64,000 bases of DNA. Source: Cytospora piceicola. Its lineage: Eukaryota; Ascomycota; Sordariomycetes; Diaporthales; Cytosporaceae. The DNA is taken from the NCBI GenBank assembly GCA_023375675.1, contig JALQBC010000012.1, positions 434,001 to 498,000 of the forward strand, written 5' to 3'. The translations under genes and the position numbers were made by a program. Of this stretch, positions 3,074-47,200 are shown piece after piece (positions within the stretch are counted from its first letter, which is position 1; the number at the start of each line of letters is the position of its first letter). Under the pieces are notes generated by a model. It had not been told where the DNA came from. It was given only the letters and a program-made list of their open reading frames with translations, and searched no databases.

Positions 3074-3668
3074 CGAGAGAGGCACAGAAGAAGTCAAGCC
3101 TCGATTTCATGTGCTCGCCCGATGTCACGTTTCCCGTCAGGTGTGTGGAAGAGGTCGTCTCAGGTGCAGGTACAAGGAAGTACAGAGGCGACTGGTCCTG
3201 ACGCAATCTTGGGTCTGGAGAATACCGGAGAAGCGTGGGATATTTCTGCATGTTGTGGGGAATGCAAGCCAAAATCCCACGTTTCCAACGAGAAACCCAC
3301 AACTGCCAGACTGCGGACGTACATATCCGTACGGGCCACCATGTTGACCATGACCAAGCTAAGAATACCATTACCTACCTATGTACCGACTGTAAATACG
3401 TCAAGAACTACAGGAGGTACCATGGTTTCCGGAAGTCGGGGTATCTCGGTGTCATGAAAAGATCATACATCGAACTTGTCTAGAGGACTGAAAAAACCCT
3501 CTACCACAGTAGTACATACCAACGCCTGCCAACCTGCAGTAGGTACGTACTTAAGTACCTAGGTGCATGGTACGTAAGGAGTCAGAGAGTGCCGAGGGCC
3601 AAAGAACCTTGTCCCTGTCTGGAACAGCGGAGGCAGAGAAGAAAAAGAAGAAAAAGAAGCAGAGGAAG

Positions 3669-3761
3669 AAAAAAAACCCAACGACGGGAATTGAACCCGA
3701 GTCGAAGCGGGTCCGTGTCGCGTGGGGGTCCCCAAGGTGCCGCCGTTCTCGCCATTCCCGT
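3669..3761 (-). other. Possible Pol III promoter relic (tRNA-like A box, B box, T-run)
   Basis: On the minus strand, TGGCGAGAACGG (3754-3743) fits the tRNA A-box pattern, GGGTTCAATTCCC (3698-3686) fits the B box and T-loop, and a run of eight T follows. No paired acceptor stem can be drawn: the 3' strand after the T arm is CGTTGGG and no CCCAACG lies upstream. A functional tRNA is therefore unlikely. A decayed tRNA or a tRNA-derived SINE fragment would look like this, but chance cannot be excluded. Confidence 0.25.
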
Positions 3762-6199
3762 GACACTTTTTTGGTTTTTAGTTTGTACATAGACTATGTA
3801 GTCTTCTCGTCACCCTCGTGGGCTTTGGCTCTGACCAACCACGCCGCACTGTTCAGGCTCCTACTTCATCATCAGGCTGAAAATTAGGGGCCAGCAACTT
3901 CAAGTTGTTGGTTCCAGGTCCAGGTAGGTAGCTCCCTTGTAGCCCAGGCCCAGTTCGGTTTTCCCATCCGAATTCGAAGGGGGGCCACAGAAGACCGATC
4001 CAAATCTCGGCGACAGCGAGAGAAAAAGAAGCAGGTACTGTAGAAAGGAAGAACTAAAGAAACGATGAAGAGGGAAATCAGGAAATGTAAGGGCTTGGTG
4101 GGTTCCGCCCTGCCGTCGTTAGAATACATATCTTGACTTTGTGTCACATTGTTCTGGAAGTCCTGGAGGGGTACACTATTTATTCCCACAAGATCCACGA
4201 TCTCCCGGGTTTCAGTGTATTTATTAACAGGCAACCGGGCAAAGGCAAGAAAAAAGGAAAAGCAAAACTCCTTCCTCCCACACCCCCCCCCCAAAAAAAA
4301 GGGAACACGGCAATCTGTAAAATTAAGGTGTCCACTCACAGCTGGAGTCTACAATGGTCGACTTGCGGCAATACATACTTCCTTCCCTATATTTACTTAG
4401 TAAGTACCTACTGTACATACATACCTAGGTACCTACATACTGTAAAGTGGATGGTTGTCTCGGCAGGCCGTACTACTGGGTAAGTAGTGTAGCCCTCCGG
4501 AAGGCGGGGCCGGCTCGCTGACAGGTATTGACTGTATCATAATCCTGTCGCAGAGTCACGCAGTGCAACAATGCAATGCACCCGTCCTGTCCTCATTCGA
4601 ACTGGCTTCCAGCCTTCTTTCCTTTTTCTCCTTTCTCGGACATACCTCTCTTCCCCGAGTTATGCAGCTGGCCGCATCGCCAGCCCGAGGGTCCCGGGTC
4701 CGTTGTCTTGTTTGTGCTTAAGTAGGCAACATGGGCCGAAGATGAAGCTGGGGCATGGCAAGCTGGCTGGGGGGGGGGGCCGAGAAGACATGGTAAAACA
4801 CTTATCCTCGTCCCCCCCCCCACGCTAGTAGAGGAGCTGAGGAGCTGAGGAGTTACACAGTACTGTGGTACATACAGAGCTGCCAGCCCGCCTCAACATT
4901 TCAATGATGCAGATCACGACAGTCCGTTCGTTCACAGTTCACCATGGTTTAACCGTGGCAGTCGCAGGCAGCATTGATGGGCGACATCACAACAGGTGTG
5001 GGCCACGATCCTCTAATACGGCCAAAATTGCCGATTTCATCGGGGGCTTTTGCCGTGCTGGGCACGCAAGTACGAAGCATTGACTTTGTCATTCACTTTG
5101 TGTCTGTGTCATCCAGAGACGTAATATTTCCAAACTTAAAGTGTTCGGTAGGTCGGCGTTACGCCGGCAGCACCTCCCGTCATGATGCAATGAGTTGGCC
5201 GAGGCCATCCATCCATGGATGACAGTTCCAAGGTTATTAGATGCTGAAACTCGCCAGTGCCTAGAGCCCCTCTTTCACCTGTCATAGGCTCCATGACTGT
5301 GGCCGTGCATTCCGTACCAAATAAATGCCTCCTTCCAAAATGTCACGTCCTCACGGAGGTGTCGTGTGATGAGATGGCTGAACTGACCCGATTGGCTGTG
5401 GCCAAATTGCGATGCATCGCCAGCATCCCCAGTGGCGGCCGGAGGATTGCGAGATCAACTCTCCCGTCGCGCTTGATCGGATAGGCGCTTAAAAGGTTGG
5501 CTGCTGCGTGTCGAAGCCTTTTGATCCTCGACTCCCCTCCCCCCGACCATCTCCATGTTGGTACCGGACAGACGATGTCGGACACCTTGGAAGGGTCCAG
5601 GCCTGCAACACGCTGATGTTCCCAAAGCTAACAGGCATATTGGGAGAGATCACACGTCTCTTTTGCTACATAGTAGATTGCAAATATCTCGTACAGTAAT
5701 TTCCAACTGTAGGACCAGTTAGGATGCCAGCCTCAGAGTGTCGTGGCTGAATTCTTGGAGGCGCTTGAGCGCACACCAGCCCTGGCACGATCTCTCACTC
5801 GACATGGCACCGCATAATATGGTAAGACAAGCCTTTCATAACATATACTTGAATACGCTTGGCCTCTTCCACTGAGAAGTAGGAGCCACTGCCTTTTCTC
5901 GGGTTGTTGCTGGTAAGAAGTCCAAGATGCCAGGTTCTAGTTGTCCCGTTCTTGTTTAAATAACATTTCGCGTCGGTAATTTTGCGAATTTGTAGTAGCT
6001 GAGAGCTATGGCGCATGGTGGACCTGATTTGTACTTAGGTAAGGTGTAGACCCCGGGAGCCCTCTGAAAGGTCCTGTAAGGTCCCCACCCAATGGGAATA
6101 TTACCGATTGGCCACCTGGGCAGTTACCACACCTAGGTACTTTCTTGCCTCCCGAGCTGATCCTTGTCCATCAGCCTTGCTACTGACGTTCGACATCGC

Positions 6200-36949: not shown

Positions 36950-37399
36950 CATCATTCCTTTATATACGTAAGCTCTATCTTATTTAGCGGTTATACGGTT
37001 AGTCTTTTTTACCTGTAAAACGTCTGTATATTAATAGCCTGTTAGCCGATAACGATTTACATTTATAAAACAGCTAAGTATTAATAGATAATATATATTA
37101 GCTGTTAAGCTTTTATTTTACTATTTACTATTATAAAAAGTAAAACTCTATATACCGGTATATATATATTATATATTTACTATATTACTTTATTATTATA
37201 CCGCTTCGGGTAAATCGTTTTACTTATTTTTCTTAAACTAACTTTTATAGTTACTATAAAAACTTCTACTTTATTATAGCCTTTCGATTATATTATAACG
37301 GTACTCTTTATACTATATATCTACTTTACAACGTTATTTATAATAAGTAGCTTTTAAAAGAGATTTTTAAAAATATATATATAATACGGTTGTAGTAAC

Positions 37400-40300
37400 T
37401 AGTTATTATATTTATTTATATACCGGAGTTAAAAAAGCTGTATAGCTAACTACTTATAAATAGTATCGAAAGTATTCTTATACTTAATTTAAAGCCTATA
37501 ATAGTTAAATATAAATCTTATAATACTATATACTAAATAAACGAAAAACTTTTTATATATATTATAAATATAGATATTATATTATAGTTAAATAGAATAT
37601 TAATAATTTTACTATATAATAATTTATAACTATAAACCCGAAGTTTAAAAAATACTACTTATAAGATAATATATATATTCCGGCTTTCCGGCTTTTATTA
37701 TCTTTTTTATATAACTTATTATATAATATTATATTATATAGTAAGGCTTTTCGTAAAGATATATAACAATATAATAATATCTTTACCTTTACTTTTATCG
37801 ACTATAAAAAGATAAGGTATAATATTATAAACGGTAAACTTATAGATTTTTAAATTTATAAGGCTTTATATTACCGAACCGGCCTATTATAGAAGGTATT
37901 AGGTTAAAGGCTATAATATATATAGCTGTATTTTTATAATCTTAACTACGTTTTTATACTTTATTTTATATTTAACGACAGCTTAAATATAATAATTTTT
38001 AACTATATTATAGATTACTTATATAAGAATAACCTGTTTATTAATATATATTTTACTATATAAGAGTAGTTTTAGTAAGTAATAGGCTTAGTATAGGTAG
38101 CTTTAAACTTATAAATATAGTTAATATTTAAAGATAAGGCCGACTAAAGATATATAAACCTTCTTATAGCTAATAAGGTTATTATTATTATTCCGTATAA
38201 GTATATAAACGTTAGCTTTCGGGATTTCGTTTTTATAGAACGAACTATAAATAGTATAGAGGTTATAGCTTTTTATTATATATAGCTATCTTATTTTATA
38301 TATTTTTTTTTATATACCTTTTTATACTATTATATAGTAACTATAGCTAATACTAAAGAATAAAAGTCCGGGATTTATAAGATATTAGCTGTAAATCGGA
38401 TTATATAAGCTTATAAAAGTATAGCCGATATATCTTTTACCTACGAATAGCGAATTTATAAATATTATTTTCCTTTCGATAGTTATTTTAATAGCTATTA
38501 GTAAATTTATAGGCTATAACAGACTAAATAAAGCTTACTTAGTTAAAGACTTATTAAGCTAACCTATAAGCAGACCTATATAATAGTATTATAGATTAGC
38601 TATAGTAGAGCGACGGCGATATAGCTTAAGTCGAGACCTATATTATTCTGCTTATAACGTATATTAAAGGCTAGCGGTTTATTAGTTAGTACTATTAAGA
38701 CTTTATTACTATTATATAGGCCTTTAGTATACTTACGTTTTTTATTATAGTTATTATAAACCTTATATAACCGGAAATCTTTTATAAACTTAGTTTAAAT
38801 AAGTTTATTATAAACCGTTTAAATATTATAGGCTGTATATTTTAGCTTAAATATAACGCTTTTTTAAAAGAATTATAAAATAAGCTATTTAAAGACTTTA
38901 TAAGCGTAGTTTAAACTATCGAGTTTTAAAAATAAAGCTTATCTTATAAATATATCTTACTATTTCTTACTTATAAAGCTATAGATTTTTATAGGTTTTT
39001 TATAAATATCGATTATATAATTCGTACGGAACTTTTTACCCCGGAGGAAGATTTAAATAGTATATTATAAGGTATTATAAAAAGTTTTATAGTATATAGT
39101 TTATACGGTATAGTAAACCTATAGAGTTTTTATATATAGCCTTTTAAAACTATAGCCTTGATTATTTATTATAAAAACTTTCCGAAAGATTTTATAAACA
39201 AAATATTAATATCGGAGGATAAATACCTATTTTATAAACGTTATAATAATAGTTAAACTATAAAAAAAAAGGTAAATAACTAAAAGGTTTAGCTAAATAA
39301 CCGCTAAGTTATACCGTATAGCTTATACCTCTACTATAAATACTAAGTATATATTAATATAAAGATTTATATAACTATAAAGGCTATAAAGTATATTTAT
39401 AAGTATATATATAAAGGTATAGATAAAGCTATAGTTATATTATAAAATAGCCGTACTTTTAATAAGATTATTATATACCTATAAAGCCGGTATATAAGCT
39501 TTATAAAGGCGATTATATATTTATTTAAATACTTTATTTATAAGAAGTTTTTACTTATAATACGTTTACCGGTTTATTTAAAAGGTTAACAGCTTATATA
39601 TTTCCGAGATAATACTTTTTTATAAAAGGTTATAGGTATTATAAACTATAGTAAGTCTTAGTTAATAGCGTTTTTTAACTATAATAAGGATAATATAAAC
39701 AGGCGAAAGCTTTTATATATCGACTTTCCTTATTCTTATATTTAAAAATAATAGTAAAAGTAGTAATAGTCTTAATAACGTAGTACTACGGTTAGCTATA
39801 TATATTATATATTACTTATTATTAATAAGCTATACTTTTTATAGCTTTTCTTTTATAATATTTATAGCCTGTAGTTATTCGAGTATATATAAACTATTAA
39901 TAACGTTATTTATCTTACTTATAAAGCTGTTTATTTTACTATAGGTCTGTTAAACTATAATAGTTATTAAACTACTTATTTTAAAAAGGCTATAGTTTAA
40001 TAGACCGGCTTTACGTTATAACGTTTTTTTATTATTATACTTTTTTATAAAAACGTTTTAAACTATACCGGGTTATAGAATACGTTTATAGCTTCGATTT
40101 ATAATAATCTACTATACCGTTTCTATAGCTATACTAATATCTTACCTAGCTTTTAAAAGCTATATTTTAATTATAGCTTTTTCTTTTTTTAATAACAGCT
40201 TTATAAATATAAAAAGAACTTTAAGGATTTCGGTCTTTTTAAGCTATAATATAGCTAGAAATCGGTATAATTAAACTTATAGCTAAAAGTTAAGCTAGAC

Positions 40301-41690
40301 TATAATATAAAAGACTAACAGCTATTTTATAATAACGCTTATAGCCGGTTTAATAAGTAGTAGTTGTTTATTTTTTAAAAAATTATTATTACGGTAAAAA
40401 CTATACCCGAAAACGTATACTTTTTTATTTAAGGTTTAAAAGGGATAAGGAAAACCTTTCTTTATAAGGCTTTTACAGCGTATATATAAGCTTATAGATA
40501 GGTTATTCTTTATATAGCCTCTTTTAGTATTATAGTATTACTTTTCCCGGGCGGCTGTATAGCTTACTCCTGCTTCCGGATCTTTATATCGATTTACTAA
40601 GCGTTTATATATAGTATTAAAAAGAACTTTAAGCTTATTGACTTACTATAGGCTATATCTTTTATTATTTAAAACAAGGTTTTTATATAGTATAAGTACT
40701 ACTTTAAAGCTATAAACCGTATATTATAGGATATTATATATAGCGATAAATTATTTAATAGGATCTTTATAGCTTTTAACGGTAATTTTATTTAAATTCT
40801 CTCGGTTATATAGAAAGAAATATATATATAAATTATATAAGTATTTTTGTTATAGTTATATATTTAGCTTAATATATAAGTTCGGCGTTTTATAAAGAAT
40901 ATACAGGTTTAAAAAGCTAATAAAAAGAACTATAACTTTATTTAATAATTATAAGATATACTGTATAAGCCGGAACTATATAGGTTAATCGAGTTATACC
41001 TTATAATCTCTTTATATTCTAATATTATAGACTTTTTTTAAACAGTATATTTAAACTAGCTATTAATATAAGCCTTTTTTAACCCGGGTATATTTATAAA
41101 CCGCTATATATTATCTGAGATAAATATTACCGTTATAAAGCTAAATTATACTACCTTTTACCGCTTTCCCGGTAATACTACAGCCTGTTTAGCTATTATA
41201 AAGGTTATAAACGGCTTTAAAGATATCTTTATAGTTAGCTTTTTACTAGAGTTTTTATAGTTTATAGAGTTTCTTTTTATTTTACTTACTTATTTAAATC
41301 TAAAGTTTAAAGTTTTTATAATTTTTATATAAAACTTTAATATATAATAAGGTTTATATAATAGTACTTATATAGTTATTTTATAGATAAAGAAGAACTA
41401 TTTAAAAGTTTATGTTTTTATAAGTAACTTTATAGGCGAGACTTAGTATATTCTTTATATTAAACTAATAATTTCGTTAAAAAACTTCGCTTTTATTATT
41501 TCTTATATATAGTTTCTGATTTAGCTTTACTTTATAATAACGATTAATAAGTTATAAAGTTAGTTATTTATATATATAAGTATAGACTTATAGTAGCTAA
41601 TGTTTTTTTATAGTTAGTTTTATATAGTAATATTCTGTATTATAGATATTTATAGTCTATATATTTTATATTTAATCGATACTTTTTATA
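37400..41690 (+). pseudogene. Helitron RepHel protein (HUH Rep endonuclease plus PIF1-like helicase), destroyed by RIP
   Basis: The ancestral protein nicked and rejoined single strands with its HUH Rep domain and unwound DNA with a superfamily 1 PIF1-like helicase. In one plus-strand frame from about 38,480 to 41,650 I read, in order: a DIA*VET...YYQDFITII*AF block near 38,618 (Rep N side); SLSYKYILLFL at 38,936-38,968, which is GLPHEHILLFL with G, P, H, E and H codons changed only by C-to-T or G-to-A; KNFPKDF near 39,173; a VIPYSLYL...AIKYIYKYIYKG block near 39,310-39,420; the Walker A relic GLKGIRKT (40,433, from a GLGGTGKT-like motif); and ITINKL*S* (41,537, from MTINKSQGQ), the helicase end. 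An N-terminal block (KDKAD*RYINLLIANKV, 38,130) is in another frame, so at least one indel lies near 38.3-38.5 kb. The 5' limit is approximate. Confidence 0.87.
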
Positions 41691-42299
41691 TAATAAACGT
41701 AGTTTACTTAAAAGTATTAGTTATAAAAAACTTTTTATAAATAATTTATAAGTATATAATAAAACTTTTATTTTATTACCGGCTAATAATATATATAATA
41801 GTTTATTTTATACTTAAAAAAGTAGTTTATATATATACTTCCGGCTTACTACTATATAAATATATAGCTATAGAATATCTTATTCCTATCTTTATAGTAT
41901 TAATATACTTTACTTTCCTTTCGCAGTTTTATAGCTATATAAATAAAAACGGCTATTTACGTATACTTTTCTTTTTACCGCCTATTAAACTTATTTACTT
42001 TAAAGTTATAAATAACTAAGTCTTTTTTAGCCTGCCGGCCTATTAGTATAGAAAATAGAAGTAATTATAATATATAAATCTCTTACCTTTTAAGTTAAGT
42101 TATAAAATATACTAATTTCCGAGTCTTATAGATTAATATACTCGAACAGAATATACTTAAGAATAATAAACGGCTTTTAAACGTTTATTAAAAAGCTATT
42201 ACGTTATTATTACTTTATTATAGCCTTCTTTATTTTATTTATAAACGTAATATAATCGTCGTTAAAGTTAAAGTTTATATATATAATAATACTATATTA

Positions 42300-44090
42300 T
42301 AGGTTTAAAAGAGCTATAAAAACTATAAAGTATAATATATAATAAAAGTATAGTTATTATATAGGTTAACGTATAAAATTTCCTCCTCTTCCGGCTATAA
42401 AAGTTTATACTTATTATATAGTAATTTCTATTATAAGTTAAGATTTTTATAATTACAGGTTATAATAAAGCGAAATTATATAAACTTCTTAGTTTATCTT
42501 ATCTTATTTTCGGCTTATATACTTATTATAAACCGGTTTCTTCTTTATTTTATATAATTTAAAGCTATAATTAAAGTATTCCGGACGTTATAATCTACCT
42601 TTATTTATCTTACTTATTAAAAGCTACCTTTAAGGTAGTTATAAAGTTATAAAGTATTCTAACTATTCTATAGCCTTTTACTATAAATATATAAAGTATA
42701 AGGATTATAAAAAAAGTTCTAGTAGCTATTTTAGCTTTTATATATTTAGTTATATCTATAAGAATAGCTATATTAAAGGCGTTAAAAGCTATAGTATTAA
42801 TATAGCTAAACGTATAGTACTAACTATAGCTAAGTAAGGTATATATTATAAAGCTATACTATTAAAAACCGGAACTAAATATAAAAGTAGTATAGATATC
42901 GCCGGGTGTAAAACTAGTATAGTTTTTAATAGTAGTAGTAGCCGTAGCCGTAGCTATAGCTATAGCTATAATAGCTTCGCCGGTATACTAAAATATAGTA
43001 GTTTTTATAAAAGATAAAGTATTATCCGATTTTTATAAGCTATTATTATTAATTTTATTTAATACTATATAGAGCTGTTTAGCCTGCTTATCTTTCTATA
43101 GCTTCTCTATAGACTTTTAAGCTATAGCGTAGTTATAACGTTTTTTACTTATAGGTATAGCGGCTATAGGCTTTACTACCTTTTCTTCTTTTACTACGTC
43201 TTTTACTTTTTTTTTATCGGACGAGTTATAGGTCTAGCTTTTTTTCTTTAAGCTTATAACCTTATAAAACGTATAACAGGTACTTTTTAAGTTATAGTAG
43301 TAGTTACTATAAGCCTTATAAGCGATACCCGGAACTTTATAGTAGCTTATAAATAGGCTTATAGCTTTTTAACAGTTCGTATATATAATATATAAGCAGA
43401 TTTTAATACTTATAATTTAAATTAATATAACCTTTAAGTTAATAAACCGACTTTAATTAACAGTTTTATTACTTTATATAACGTAGTTACGTTTTACTTA
43501 TATTACTATAAGTATTTTTATAGTTTATAGTTCGGTTATAAGAAGTACTTACGTTTATTAGTATTAACGACTATATAGCCTTTATAAACTTTTCTAGTAA
43601 GTACGATATAATATACTTTATATTAATAAGTATAATATCGCTTATAACCTTATTTATAGCTTTCGATACGGCTTTAGCTAAAGCTTTATTAAAGTTATAG
43701 TTTTTAACGATAGGCTTTATAACAGGCTTTATAATAGTAATACGGCCTATAGTATTTAAGATTTAAGTAAGCTACTAAGGCTATATAGCTGTTATAAGCT
43801 AAGTAAAGATTAAAGGCTTAAAAAGGTTTACGGTTTTAAATATATTAACAGCTTATATAAGCTATAAAGTCGGCGCGGTTTCGGGTATATTAATAGCTTA
43901 CGTAAGCTATAAAGTCGGCGTAGTCTTAAGCGTATAAATAGCCTATATAAGTTAAAAAGGCGCTATAGGCTTTATAAAAGGTATAAAAGTCGTAGTAGGA
44001 GTAGTAGGTATATTTAAGGAAGGCGTATCGGCTATAGGTTTAGCGGCGTTATCTGTTAAGAGGCTTTAAAGGGCTATATCGGTTATTTTT
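42300..44090 (-). pseudogene. Degenerate minus-strand frame inside the Helitron (possible cargo gene)
   Basis: Downstream of the helicase the plus strand no longer gives protein-like text, but the minus strand does when stops are ignored. Examples are a Lys/Ala-rich stretch, FNKALAKAVSKAINKVISD, near 43,640-43,710 and a block NLKSTCYTFYKVISLKKKS followed by SDKKKVKDVVKEEKVVKPIAA near 43,150-43,300. The Cys-containing part may once have been a zinc-binding motif. I do not recognise the family. Fungal Helitrons can carry extra genes, so cargo is possible; it could also be part of another decayed element. Confidence 0.35.
43845..43945. repeat. Imperfect tandem repeat, about 54-60 bp unit
   Basis: The unit containing AGCTTAYRTAAGCTATAAAGTCGGCG occurs twice, with a third, more diverged copy (GCCTATATAAGTTAAAAAGGCG), inside the RIP-mutated island. 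Confidence 0.6.
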
Positions 44091-44163
44091 ATATACAGAA
44101 ATAATAAAAACGGACTTTTTAGTATTAGTTTAATTAAATCTGCGGTTTAATTAGGTAAAGACA

Positions 44164-44188
44164 GGCCGTAAATAGTAGGAATACGGCC
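44164..44188 (+). other. Candidate Helitron 3' subterminal hairpin
   Basis: GGCCGTA (44164-44170) and TACGGCC (44182-44188) form a perfect 7-bp stem with an 11-nt loop. A TTAG lies 12 bases further on (44200-44203), followed by T. Helitron 3' ends have a hairpin 10-12 bases before CTRR; the C is a T here, which RIP could explain. The stem is shorter than usual. Confidence 0.5.
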
Positions 44189-44207
44189 CGTTTATATAGT
44201 TAGTTAG

Positions 44208-47200
44208 AAGGTTAAGTTGGTGGTAGAAGGAAGAAAGTCAGACCTCGCGTGTGGCGGGGTGGTAAAACCTAGTGTGAAATATCTGATGAGGATTCGCTCT
44301 AGTATGATGGCCGCGGCCCTCCGAAACACCAGCCATTATAACAGCCTTGGCACTGATAAGGAAACAGAAAGAAGGAAGAAAGATGTCCCTACTTATCATG
44401 GTCTTGAAGCCCTATATTATCTTGGCCCCACGTGGAGTAGACGACGGGAGAGCTGCGGCCTGGCAAGCCACAGCAGTTGGGTTTGATAAAGTCCCGGGCA
44501 GTTCCGCACCTCTATCATCATCAGTCTTCATCGGACTTGTACGAACTCTGATATGTGTGGAGTTTAAGGGACACCACTAGTAGGCTTGTCCAACCAGCTG
44601 CCAAAACAAGAGGGCAAACTCTGCTGGCGGGCTACGAGTGGACGTACGCACGCAGTGTACATACCTAAGTCTCGCAGCAGACGTGCGCCTTGCTGGACGC
44701 TTGATGATCTTCAGGGGTTTTTGGCGATGCCATACCACCATCTATCTGTAAGACCACAAACCGGTGTTACGAGGACTGTGCAGCTTCGCCAATTGCCCAA
44801 TAGGGTGCTTGGACGACCAAGGCTGTCCGTGCTGTGTTGAGCTTGTGCCTCCCAACGTTGTGGGCGGTAATGCAGATTCGTCAGCCTGCCAGATTGTCTT
44901 GGTAGGTAGGGCTTGCCGACGTTGTGTGTGTTTCAAGAGCAAGAGCTTGCTAACATTGTTGTGTTGTGAGGTTCCCTGGTTCTGCGTCTTTTTTCTTACT
45001 GAAATACTCGGTAGACTACTTATCCAGGTTGTAGTGGCATGAAACTTGGGAATGTGGACCCTCGACCAGTCCACTGTGTAGTAATCGGTAACTCGTAGTC
45101 CGTAGTCTGTACCTACTTACAGTAAGTAGGTAATCACATCTCTCACCCGGTGGAGCACCGAGGTTCATCCAGTACCCGACTGGTACGTGTGATATTTAAG
45201 TGAGAATTGTATGTTATGTTTGATCAGATTTGCAATGTGCCCCTCCAACAAACTTTCGCGGAGGACTTCCTCTGGCGACAGATCATCCAACTACCTAGGC
45301 AGGTACTAGACATCCCAATCCGGGTTACTTGGGCCAGCGGGGTTGAGGGGTCTGAGACACCGAGGTGCCAAGTTGCTTATTCTTTGCTCAGCAATGCATC
45401 TGTCGGGCGCGGTGTTTCCTTCGTCTCACTCTCGGGTGCCCGGGAAGCGGACAGACAGACAATTTTGAGATTAGACGCAGATTACCCCGCCATGAGGATG
45501 CATGTGAGCTGTTATTTGCCTGGACGGAGAGGAAGATGTTCCCAATGGGTTCAGGCGCCTGCACGGTTTGTTACATGCGGGGATCACATTCGGTAATCAC
45601 CAAAGTACCTGAGTACAGTTTGCACCAGTATGAATACCTAGGTACCTAGTGTATCTAGTGTATAGGTCCGTAGGTATTTGATAAAAATATAGCCGGGTTC
45701 CAGGTTGGTCCAGCCCTGAGGGAAGGTCCCTTGATGATTGGGCTCCAGGATCATGATTATTGAACCAGCAGCAGCAGTCAAGTTAGTACCATCATCAGTC
45801 ATGATGCCTGTAGATGTATCCCTTTAGGACTCTTGGCTGGAATTTTCTGGAGAGAAGAGAGAGAGAAAAAAAAGAAGAAAAAGGGTAAAAAGGGCTGCCT
45901 AGGTACCCGGGCTGCCGGGCTGGAAGACGACAGCCTTAGGACGGCAAGGCCAATAGCGACAAAGTGCCGTTTGTAGTCCGTACCGCCGTGGTCACAGACA
46001 GCATTGCTATCGTAGAGATCTTAATTTTTTAAGTATCACGGACAGCATATATTCAAGTCAGCGAGGTTGATATCGTAATCATTTACGTACTCAAGTGAAG
46101 TATTTACTGCTAAATGAGGCAAAAAAAGAAGGAAGTCAATCTTGGAAGTGAAGTAGAGTGGTAAAGTGGTAAAGTGGGTGGTAAAGTGAGTGCATATCTA
46201 CCTAGGTAGTGTACTTGGTTAGTCTAATGTAGTGGGCTACACTGTAGTCAGTACCTACTAGGCCCAGGTCCAGGGCGGGACACGACCAGTCCAAGTGCTG
46301 CAACTGCCAGCCCAGCACCCAGTCAGTGACTTATCGCTCGTCCACAGCGGATAGCGCGAAGGTGCGGGCACTTGCCTCAAATTTTTCTTACGGCCACACA
46401 AAAATTCATGCAGAACTTTGAGCCTTTCTCCTCTTCGACATCATTCCCACGATCGGTTTTCCTTTTACCCTGCCCTACTCCCACTCTTTCCCTTCTCCCG
46501 AGAGTGTGGTCCTGTTTGTTTCCTTGCGCAAAATCTCTCGTATCGAGAGAGGGGTTTTTTCTGTGGACAACCATTAGGTACGGAAACATCATTTGAAGAG
46601 CATTCTTTGGTGTCAGCTTCCCTCGTCAATCGCCGACAGTACTATCCTGCACTGCACCGCGCACCGCACACTACCTACGGCAACGAACATTTCGACGCCC
46701 ACAGTCAGACCGACGTCCTGCTCCTCACTTCCGAATTTCCGGATCTAGCTCGACATATCACGACTTTCATCAGTCTCGGTCCCCCGTTTTCCTTCTGATC
46801 ACTACAGGTGCCCCTGCCTGCCGAAGCAAAACCAGAGAGGTACGTACGAAGTGCATCAAACAATTTTATTTTCCCTCCTTCCAAAACCCGCCCCAACCAA
46901 TCCGACCCAAACCAAAGTCCGACATTGAGCTCACGTCTTCCTTCTTTACAAACAGGAACGCACTGCGCATCTTTCCTGCAGCAACAGCCTATACGTCGCT
47001 CGGATTACGCGCCAACCTTGCGAAAGTCACGTTCGATTTTCACTTTCAAGTCTTGTGGTTCTTCCACGAAATTGCTCTGACGACCCTCGTTTGAGGCGTG
47101 CCTAGGTCGAGGATCTTATTGACACCACCAACCACTTGCCCGAGCTGGGCTGCGACTGCACATCGCTGTTGCAGGCCAACCCTATCGACAGTGTACTGTA

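What the first reader, a model, noticed from the sequence alone, without database searches (positions are those of the whole stretch)
36950..44207. An ORF-less AT-rich island is a RIP-destroyed Helitron
The island would normally be written off as anonymous AT-rich DNA. Read through stops, it gives Helitron motifs in the correct order on one strand: Rep N block, HUH region, Rep-to-helicase linker, Walker A and the MTINKSQGQ helicase end. Most are in one uninterrupted frame over more than 3 kb. This implies the host has or had active RIP, and that at least two copies of this Helitron once existed, since RIP acts on duplicated sequences.
Basis: partly seen in the sequence, partly recalled or inferred. 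Interest (0 to 1): 0.9.

Follow-up and report, generated by a model that had tools for sequence, protein, structure and literature searches.

The report
RIP-destroyed Helitron transposon in a fungus
This AT-rich stretch is the wreck of a rolling-circle jumping gene (a Helitron) in a fungus, inactivated by a defence that mutates repeated DNA; it is clearly real, and a well-preserved meeting of two known things rather than a new kind of system.

Summary
The island is one 7,321-bp Helitron, window 36952-44272; the reported 3' end missed 65 bp holding the hairpin and CTAG terminus. Read through stops, one frame matches Helitron_like_N (6.5e-15), PIF1 (9e-26) and the solved Helraiser transposase (4.6e-72); the other five frames give no Pfam hit below E 0.3. 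TpA/ApT is 1.585 and (CpA+TpG)/(ApC+GpT) 0.10, against 0.68-0.74 and 1.20-1.21 in the flanks. The coding relic holds 118 stops (68 TAA, 50 TAG, no TGA). At least 11 copies carrying this gene were found in the genome, all with stops, and 17 family 3' ends, all CTAG then T. Across 14 sibling loci (10 copies) there are 184-1251 transitions but only 0-8 transversions in 12 of 14. A gene fragment with the RID-type PCQ and EET motifs is present. One host gene is 91% identical to Cytospora. The ends are of canonical Helitron1 type, except that A precedes the 5' TC in only 7 of 15 copies read. RIP-hit Helitrons are already in print, so this is a new member of a known kind; it illustrates how RIP hides Helitrons from gene-based surveys.

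The parts
36952..44272 (+). whole Helitron relic, 7,321 bp, TC...CTAG, followed by T
   Evidence: siblings begin and end here
36952..36980 (+). 5' terminus starting TC; 16 matches without mismatch to the degenerate pattern in the genome, 3 more with 1-2 mismatches
37665..41722 (+). relic of the Rep-helicase gene; 118 in-frame stops (68 TAA, 50 TAG, 0 TGA); the frame changes once near 38.3 kb
38315..41722 (+). 3.4-kb stretch in one frame with Helitron_like_N, PIF1 and a weak Pif1_2B match (E 0.07)
38939..38962 (+). HUH region; both histidine places read as tyrosine, as CpA to TpA would give
39389..39418 (+). KYIYKYIYKG block (Rep tyrosine motif region; the motif name is recalled)
40433..40465 (+). 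Walker A region of the PIF1-like helicase, decayed (motif name recalled)
41540..41575 (+). C-terminal helicase motif, decayed
43469..44272 (+). 3' module also kept by the non-autonomous copies
43831..43965 (+). three direct repeats of 45 bp near the 3' end
44242..44260 (+). 3' subterminal hairpin, 7-bp stem and 5-nt loop
   Evidence: folded as 44233-44271 (z -2.09; 7 of 200 shuffles fold at least as well)
44269..44272 (+). CTAG 3' terminus (CTRR type), followed by T at 44273

Best explanation
The island is a full-length insertion of a canonical (Helitron1-type) Helitron. Shown here: its ends, its Rep-helicase relic, its siblings and its mutation pattern. Inferred: it once encoded a HUH Rep plus PIF1 helicase that nicked at the ends and moved the element by rolling-circle transfer into sites followed by T. 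It spread to at least 11 copies with the gene plus non-autonomous derivatives. The host's RIP system, which mutates repeated DNA in the sexual cycle (general knowledge), then turned cytosines on both strands into T, first and most completely in CpA and less so in CpG, CpT and CpC, probably over repeated cycles. Every copy found carries stops, and GC is 0.18-0.36 in the ten siblings measured and 0.229 here.
For: Pfam PIF1 9e-26 and Helitron_like_N 6.5e-15 in one frame, nothing below E 0.3 in the other five. Helraiser 7lcc_A 4.6e-72 for the window copy and 1.4e-123 for sibling L009; two of the five other frames, tried as controls, match no solved chain at E 1. 29 homologues of the L009 reading, best 1.7e-274 with 39% identity over 98% of the queried region. 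17 of 17 family 3' ends read CTAG then T; 0 matches for the reversed control pattern. RIP indices; CpA and TpG obs/exp 0.10, CpG 2.05, which points to CpA rather than CpG as the main target. 184-1251 transitions against 0-8 transversions in 12 of 14 sibling loci, which represent 10 copies. Against the less mutated sibling, C is T in the window at 176/221 CpA, 384/746 CpG, 421/1062 CpT and 122/600 CpC. RID-like gene fragment with PPCQ and EET (meaning of the motifs from PMC6709928, passages read).
Against: The base 5' of TC is A in only 7 of 15 copies read (T 4, G 4; [quoted passage not shown] No empty site was found in the genome for 8 of 13 joined flanks searched, so absence of a target duplication is not proved. 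L008 and L014 have 59 and 50 transversions, 47 and 45 of them within 36986-37338, so the 5' segment of those copies has another history. Copy-to-copy differences are not confined to CpA: many lie in CpT and CpG, which I read as the result of CpA being nearly exhausted in all. No tree was built.
Confidence: 0.97

Rival explanations
1. The Helitron motifs are a chance reading of low-complexity AT-rich DNA once stops are ignored.
For: Very biased composition; weak spurious matches do occur (MCLC E 0.31 in another frame; DUF7049 E 0.0061, below its cut-off, in a sibling frame).
Against: 9e-26 and 6.5e-15 in one frame only; 4.6e-72 to Helraiser over collinear stretches; the same protein is found in 11 copies.
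Confidence: 0.005
2. The AT-richness comes from ordinary decay of methylated CpG or a general AT mutation bias, not RIP.
For: Against the less mutated sibling, CpG and CpT cytosines also changed often (384/746 and 421/1062).
Against: CpG is over-represented (2.05) and CpA/TpG almost absent (0.10); the index returns to flank values within a few hundred bases of the element borders; transversions are nearly absent in 12 of 14 sibling loci, so long neutral decay is unlikely.
Confidence: 0.03
3. It is a Helitron2-type element, as most known Pezizomycotina Helitrons are (PMC5148889, section 12 read).
For: The 5' flank base is not always A; Helitron2 is the common type in this group.
Against: The 3' end is a hairpin then CTAG, not an ATTTT end with an upstream inverted repeat; no significant 5' hairpin; the best match among solved structures is Helraiser. 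No tree with Helitron2 proteins was built, and no Helitron2 protein was compared directly.
Confidence: 0.05

Closest known systems
Helraiser (Helitron transposase, PDB 7lcc)
   Same: Rep plus PIF1-type helicase, collinear over most of the protein
   Different: The window copy is dead; the host is an ascomycete, whereas Helraiser comes from a bat (recalled)
Morchella sextelata protein P0009 and metagenome protein P0008
   Same: 36% and 39% identity over 98% of the queried region of the sibling L009 reading
   Different: These are listed as open proteins of 1,477 and 1,387 aa; no open copy of this family was found in the assembly by the search
RIP-hit FoHeli1 of Fusarium solani (PMC5148889, section 13 read)
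   Same: Fungal Helitron with an excess of CpA-to-TpA type mutation; the authors link this to few detectable Rep-helicase proteins
   Different: FoHeli1 has Helitron2-type ends (TCAG...ATTTT, inverted repeats; passages read); this one has TC...hairpin...CTAG
HELPO1 of Pleurotus ostreatus (PMC4289320, passages read)
   Same: TC/CTRR-type ends, subterminal hairpin, Rep-helicase ORF
   Different: Basidiomycete; AT content of the elements there is like that of the genome (49%)

Membership tests
Canonical Helitron (Helitron1) | Rep (HUH) domain followed by PIF1-like helicase in one gene | tested here: met
Canonical Helitron (Helitron1) | 5' end TC | tested here: met
   of 16 family 5' ends matching the degenerate pattern without mismatch, 13 begin TC and 3 begin TT, its C-to-T form
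Canonical Helitron (Helitron1) | 3' end CTRR with a hairpin 10-12 nt from the 3' terminus | tested here: met
   CTAG in 17 of 17; the hairpin ends at 44260, 12 nt before the terminus 44272
Canonical Helitron (Helitron1) | Insertion between A and T | tested here: inconclusive
   3' T in 17 of 17; 5' A in only 7 of 15
Canonical Helitron (Helitron1) | No target-site duplication | tested here: inconclusive
   no duplication is apparent beside the ends but no empty site was found (8 of 13 joined flanks searched)
Canonical Helitron (Helitron1) | Rep-helicase grouping with Helitron1 in a tree | not tested
   no tree was built
RIP | CpA/TpG loss and TpA gain in repeated DNA and not beside it | tested here: met
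   island against the rest of the window; the island is repeated
RIP | C-to-T on both strands with few other changes between copies | tested here: met
   exceptions L008 and L014
RIP | RID/Masc1-type methyltransferase in the host | tested here: met
   C1:1594954-1595951 with PPCQ and EET; only 1,011 bases were read, no tree was built, function not tested
RIP | Mutation occurs in the sexual cycle | not testable with these tools
   needs crosses
Helitron2 | Asymmetric terminal inverted repeats and hairpins at both ends | tested here: not met
   no significant 5' hairpin (91 of 200 shuffles fold at least as well); 3' ends read CTAG, not ATTTT; inverted repeats between the ends were looked for only in the general repeat list, which showed its 25 longest of 32

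The most novel reading that the evidence does not exclude
Canonical Helitrons were common in ascomycetes, and their apparent rarity in protein-based surveys is largely produced by RIP: whole families, like this one with 11 gene-bearing copies and no open copy found, vanish from gene sets but can be recovered by stop-tolerant searches.
Probability: 0.3. Interest if true: 0.55.

Novelty: new member of a known kind. Interest (0 to 1): 0.35.

Why it matters
It shows, with termini, siblings and a solved homologue, that an AT-rich island without ORFs can be read back as a complete Helitron. PMC4289320 (passages read) reports Rep-helicase proteins in 87% of the basidiomycete genomes analysed but in 30% of the ascomycete ones, and PMC5148889 (section 13 read) suggests RIP as part of the reason in one species. 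This family is a direct case: all 11 gene-bearing copies found carry many stops. The idea can be tested by stop-tolerant searches over many RIP-competent genomes.

Tried and rejected
Another gene beyond the transposase: six frames of the 3' third of sibling L009 (1434-4100) against Pfam gave only DUF7049 at E 0.0061, under its cut-off. No Rfam family reached its gathering score in the window. The Pfam-only genome search found 2 loci and missed the window copy and all siblings but one, so it was not used for copy counts. Empty sites: 8 of 13 joined flanks searched, 22 hits, 16 of them the flanks themselves and 6 partial; none ran across a junction by more than about 9 bases. P0007, P0008 and P0009 did not match the second Helitron_like_N locus on C57 in tblastn at 1e-3, so that locus stays unplaced. 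Paper searches. The two aimed at Cytospora, Valsa or Diaporthales listed 12 of 237 and 10 of 164 papers; no listed title is about a Helitron in these fungi, which is not proof of absence. PMC9911072 (five Valsa genomes) was seen in the listing only.

Full report
What is there. The region 36950-44207 has GC 0.226 against 0.547 and 0.550 on the two sides. TpA/ApT is 1.585 inside and 0.737/0.684 outside; (CpA+TpG)/(ApC+GpT) is 0.100 inside and 1.195/1.214 outside. CpA and TpG fall to 0.10 of expectation while CpG rises to 2.05. No ORF of 60 aa or more with an ATG/GTG/TTG start lies inside it.

Helitron identity. With stops read as residues, one + frame matches PIF1 (9e-26), Helitron_like_N (6.5e-15) and weakly Pif1_2B (0.07). 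The other two + frames and the three - frames have nothing below E 0.3; one has MCLC at 0.31. Against the sequences of solved structures the same reading matches one protein, Helraiser (7lcc_A), at 4.6e-72; two control frames match none at E 1. The less mutated sibling L009 matches Helraiser at 1.4e-123 over residues 228-1580 and passes the cut-offs of PF05970, PF14214 and PF21530. A database search with residues 280-1580 of the L009 reading finds 29 proteins, the best with 39% identity over 98% (only proteins of 0.55 to 1.75 times the 2,440-residue reading were candidates). The two histidines of the HUH site read as tyrosine in both copies, as CpA to TpA would give.

Reading frame. Against the relative P0008 the relic spans 37665-41722, in two frames that change near 38.3 kb. 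The window copy is one base shorter than L009, and each of the ten other gene-bearing copies has a match that runs through this point in one frame. In-frame stops in the window are 68 TAA, 50 TAG and no TGA, as expected where TpG has been removed; the matches in the other copies also list only TAG and TAA.

Ends. Extending the query showed that siblings match beyond 44207. The shared end is AGACCTCGCG...AAAACCTAG. A search allowing 3 mismatches found 17 places, 16 without mismatch and one with 1, and none for the reversed control. The next base is T in 17 of 17. It ends at 44272 in the window. A hairpin with a 7-bp stem lies at 44242-44260 (z -2.09). The 5' end begins TCATTCC at 36952; a degenerate pattern finds 16 places without mismatch and 3 with 1-2. 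The base before it is A in 7, T in 4 and G in 4 of 15 distinct copies read. Because the element begins with T and is followed by T, the cut could also be placed one base to the right at both ends.

Family. A DNA search of the genome gave 51 matches, with 40 of 52 candidates scored, so counts are lower bounds. Eleven elements carry the Rep-helicase relic (the window copy on C6, C40, C14 twice, C69, C79 twice, C1, C27, C11, C29); all 18 protein matches in them carry stops. The other 4 of the 22 matches in that call are short, weak matches at the helicase end of the query (three without stops, one with a TGA) and were not examined. Non-autonomous copies on C1, C2, C7, C15 and C18 keep mainly the last 740 bp or so of the island, and four of these five also keep the first 150-170 bp. 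Several long copies are in separate pieces, apparently split by other insertions; the inserts were not identified.

Mutation pattern. In 14 sibling loci, which represent 10 copies, transitions number 184-1251. Transversions are 0-8 in 12 of them; the exceptions are L008 (59, of which 47 lie in 36986-37338) and L014 (50, of which 45 lie there). Two transversions, 40639 and 41805, are each seen in all ten loci that span them and so belong to the window copy. Taking L009 as reference, the window has T at 80% of its CpA, 51% of CpG, 40% of CpT and 20% of CpC cytosines; the reverse rates are 5-19%. L009 is therefore the less mutated of the two (GC 0.359 against 0.229). Between the other copies many differences lie in CpT and CpG rather than CpA, which fits exhaustion of CpA but does not by itself show CpA preference; the composition does. 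The inference is that the copies were nearly identical when RIP struck and that little neutral change has followed.

Host. A bHLH gene in the window is 91% identical over 97% to a Cytospora leucostoma protein, the best of 1,314 matches, so the host is probably Cytospora or a close relative (Diaporthales; placement recalled). Five loci match the DNA methylase family. One, C1:1594954-1595951, shows PPCQ and EET; PMC6709928 (passages read) gives EQT or EET in place of ENV as the mark of the Masc1/RID group. Another, on C15, lacks the PCQ cysteine. The other three were not read.

Verdict. Observation confirmed; interpretation supported with corrected ends. A RIP-hit fungal Helitron has been reported (PMC5148889, section 13), so this is a new member of a known kind. 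The gain is a delimited, canonical-type ascomycete Helitron family that ORF-based annotation would not see.

Noticed in passing
G000:C57:602280-602882 (L002, L056): A second Helitron_like_N match (48.9 bits, 3 stops) in a region of RIP-like composition; not matched by P0007, P0008 or P0009, so probably another Helitron group.
   Followed up: partly
G000:C15:605500-606450 (L058): A methyltransferase-like gene, open over the 951 bases read, that reads SPNLQ where SPPCQ is expected; possibly a non-catalytic RID-like paralogue.
   Followed up: partly
G000:C2:891973-894749, C1:665693-668774, C15:336638-349416, C7:823596-839976: Copies with the Helitron ends around a related internal segment (about 1.25 kb in C1 and C2; GC down to 0.08-0.09 in 500-bp windows); the C15 and C7 copies span 12.8 and 16.4 kb, through nested insertions or captured DNA.
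   Followed up: partly
window 36986-37338 against L008 and L014: Two copies share a 5' segment rich in transversions (47 of 59 and 45 of 50), suggesting a subfamily or exchange of 5' ends.
   Followed up: no
window 3251-4750 and 44751-46500: Raised composite RIP index in 500-bp windows (up to 0.97 and 0.43) at near-normal GC; perhaps older or lightly hit repeats.
   Followed up: no
window 43831-43965: Three 45-bp direct repeats close to the Helitron 3' end.
   Followed up: no
window 6879-62696: Ordinary host genes around the island by Pfam, 7 of 8 ORFs tried with a match: amine oxidase, DUF7896, choline kinase, NPR3, bHLH, La domain, Prp31.
   Followed up: partly
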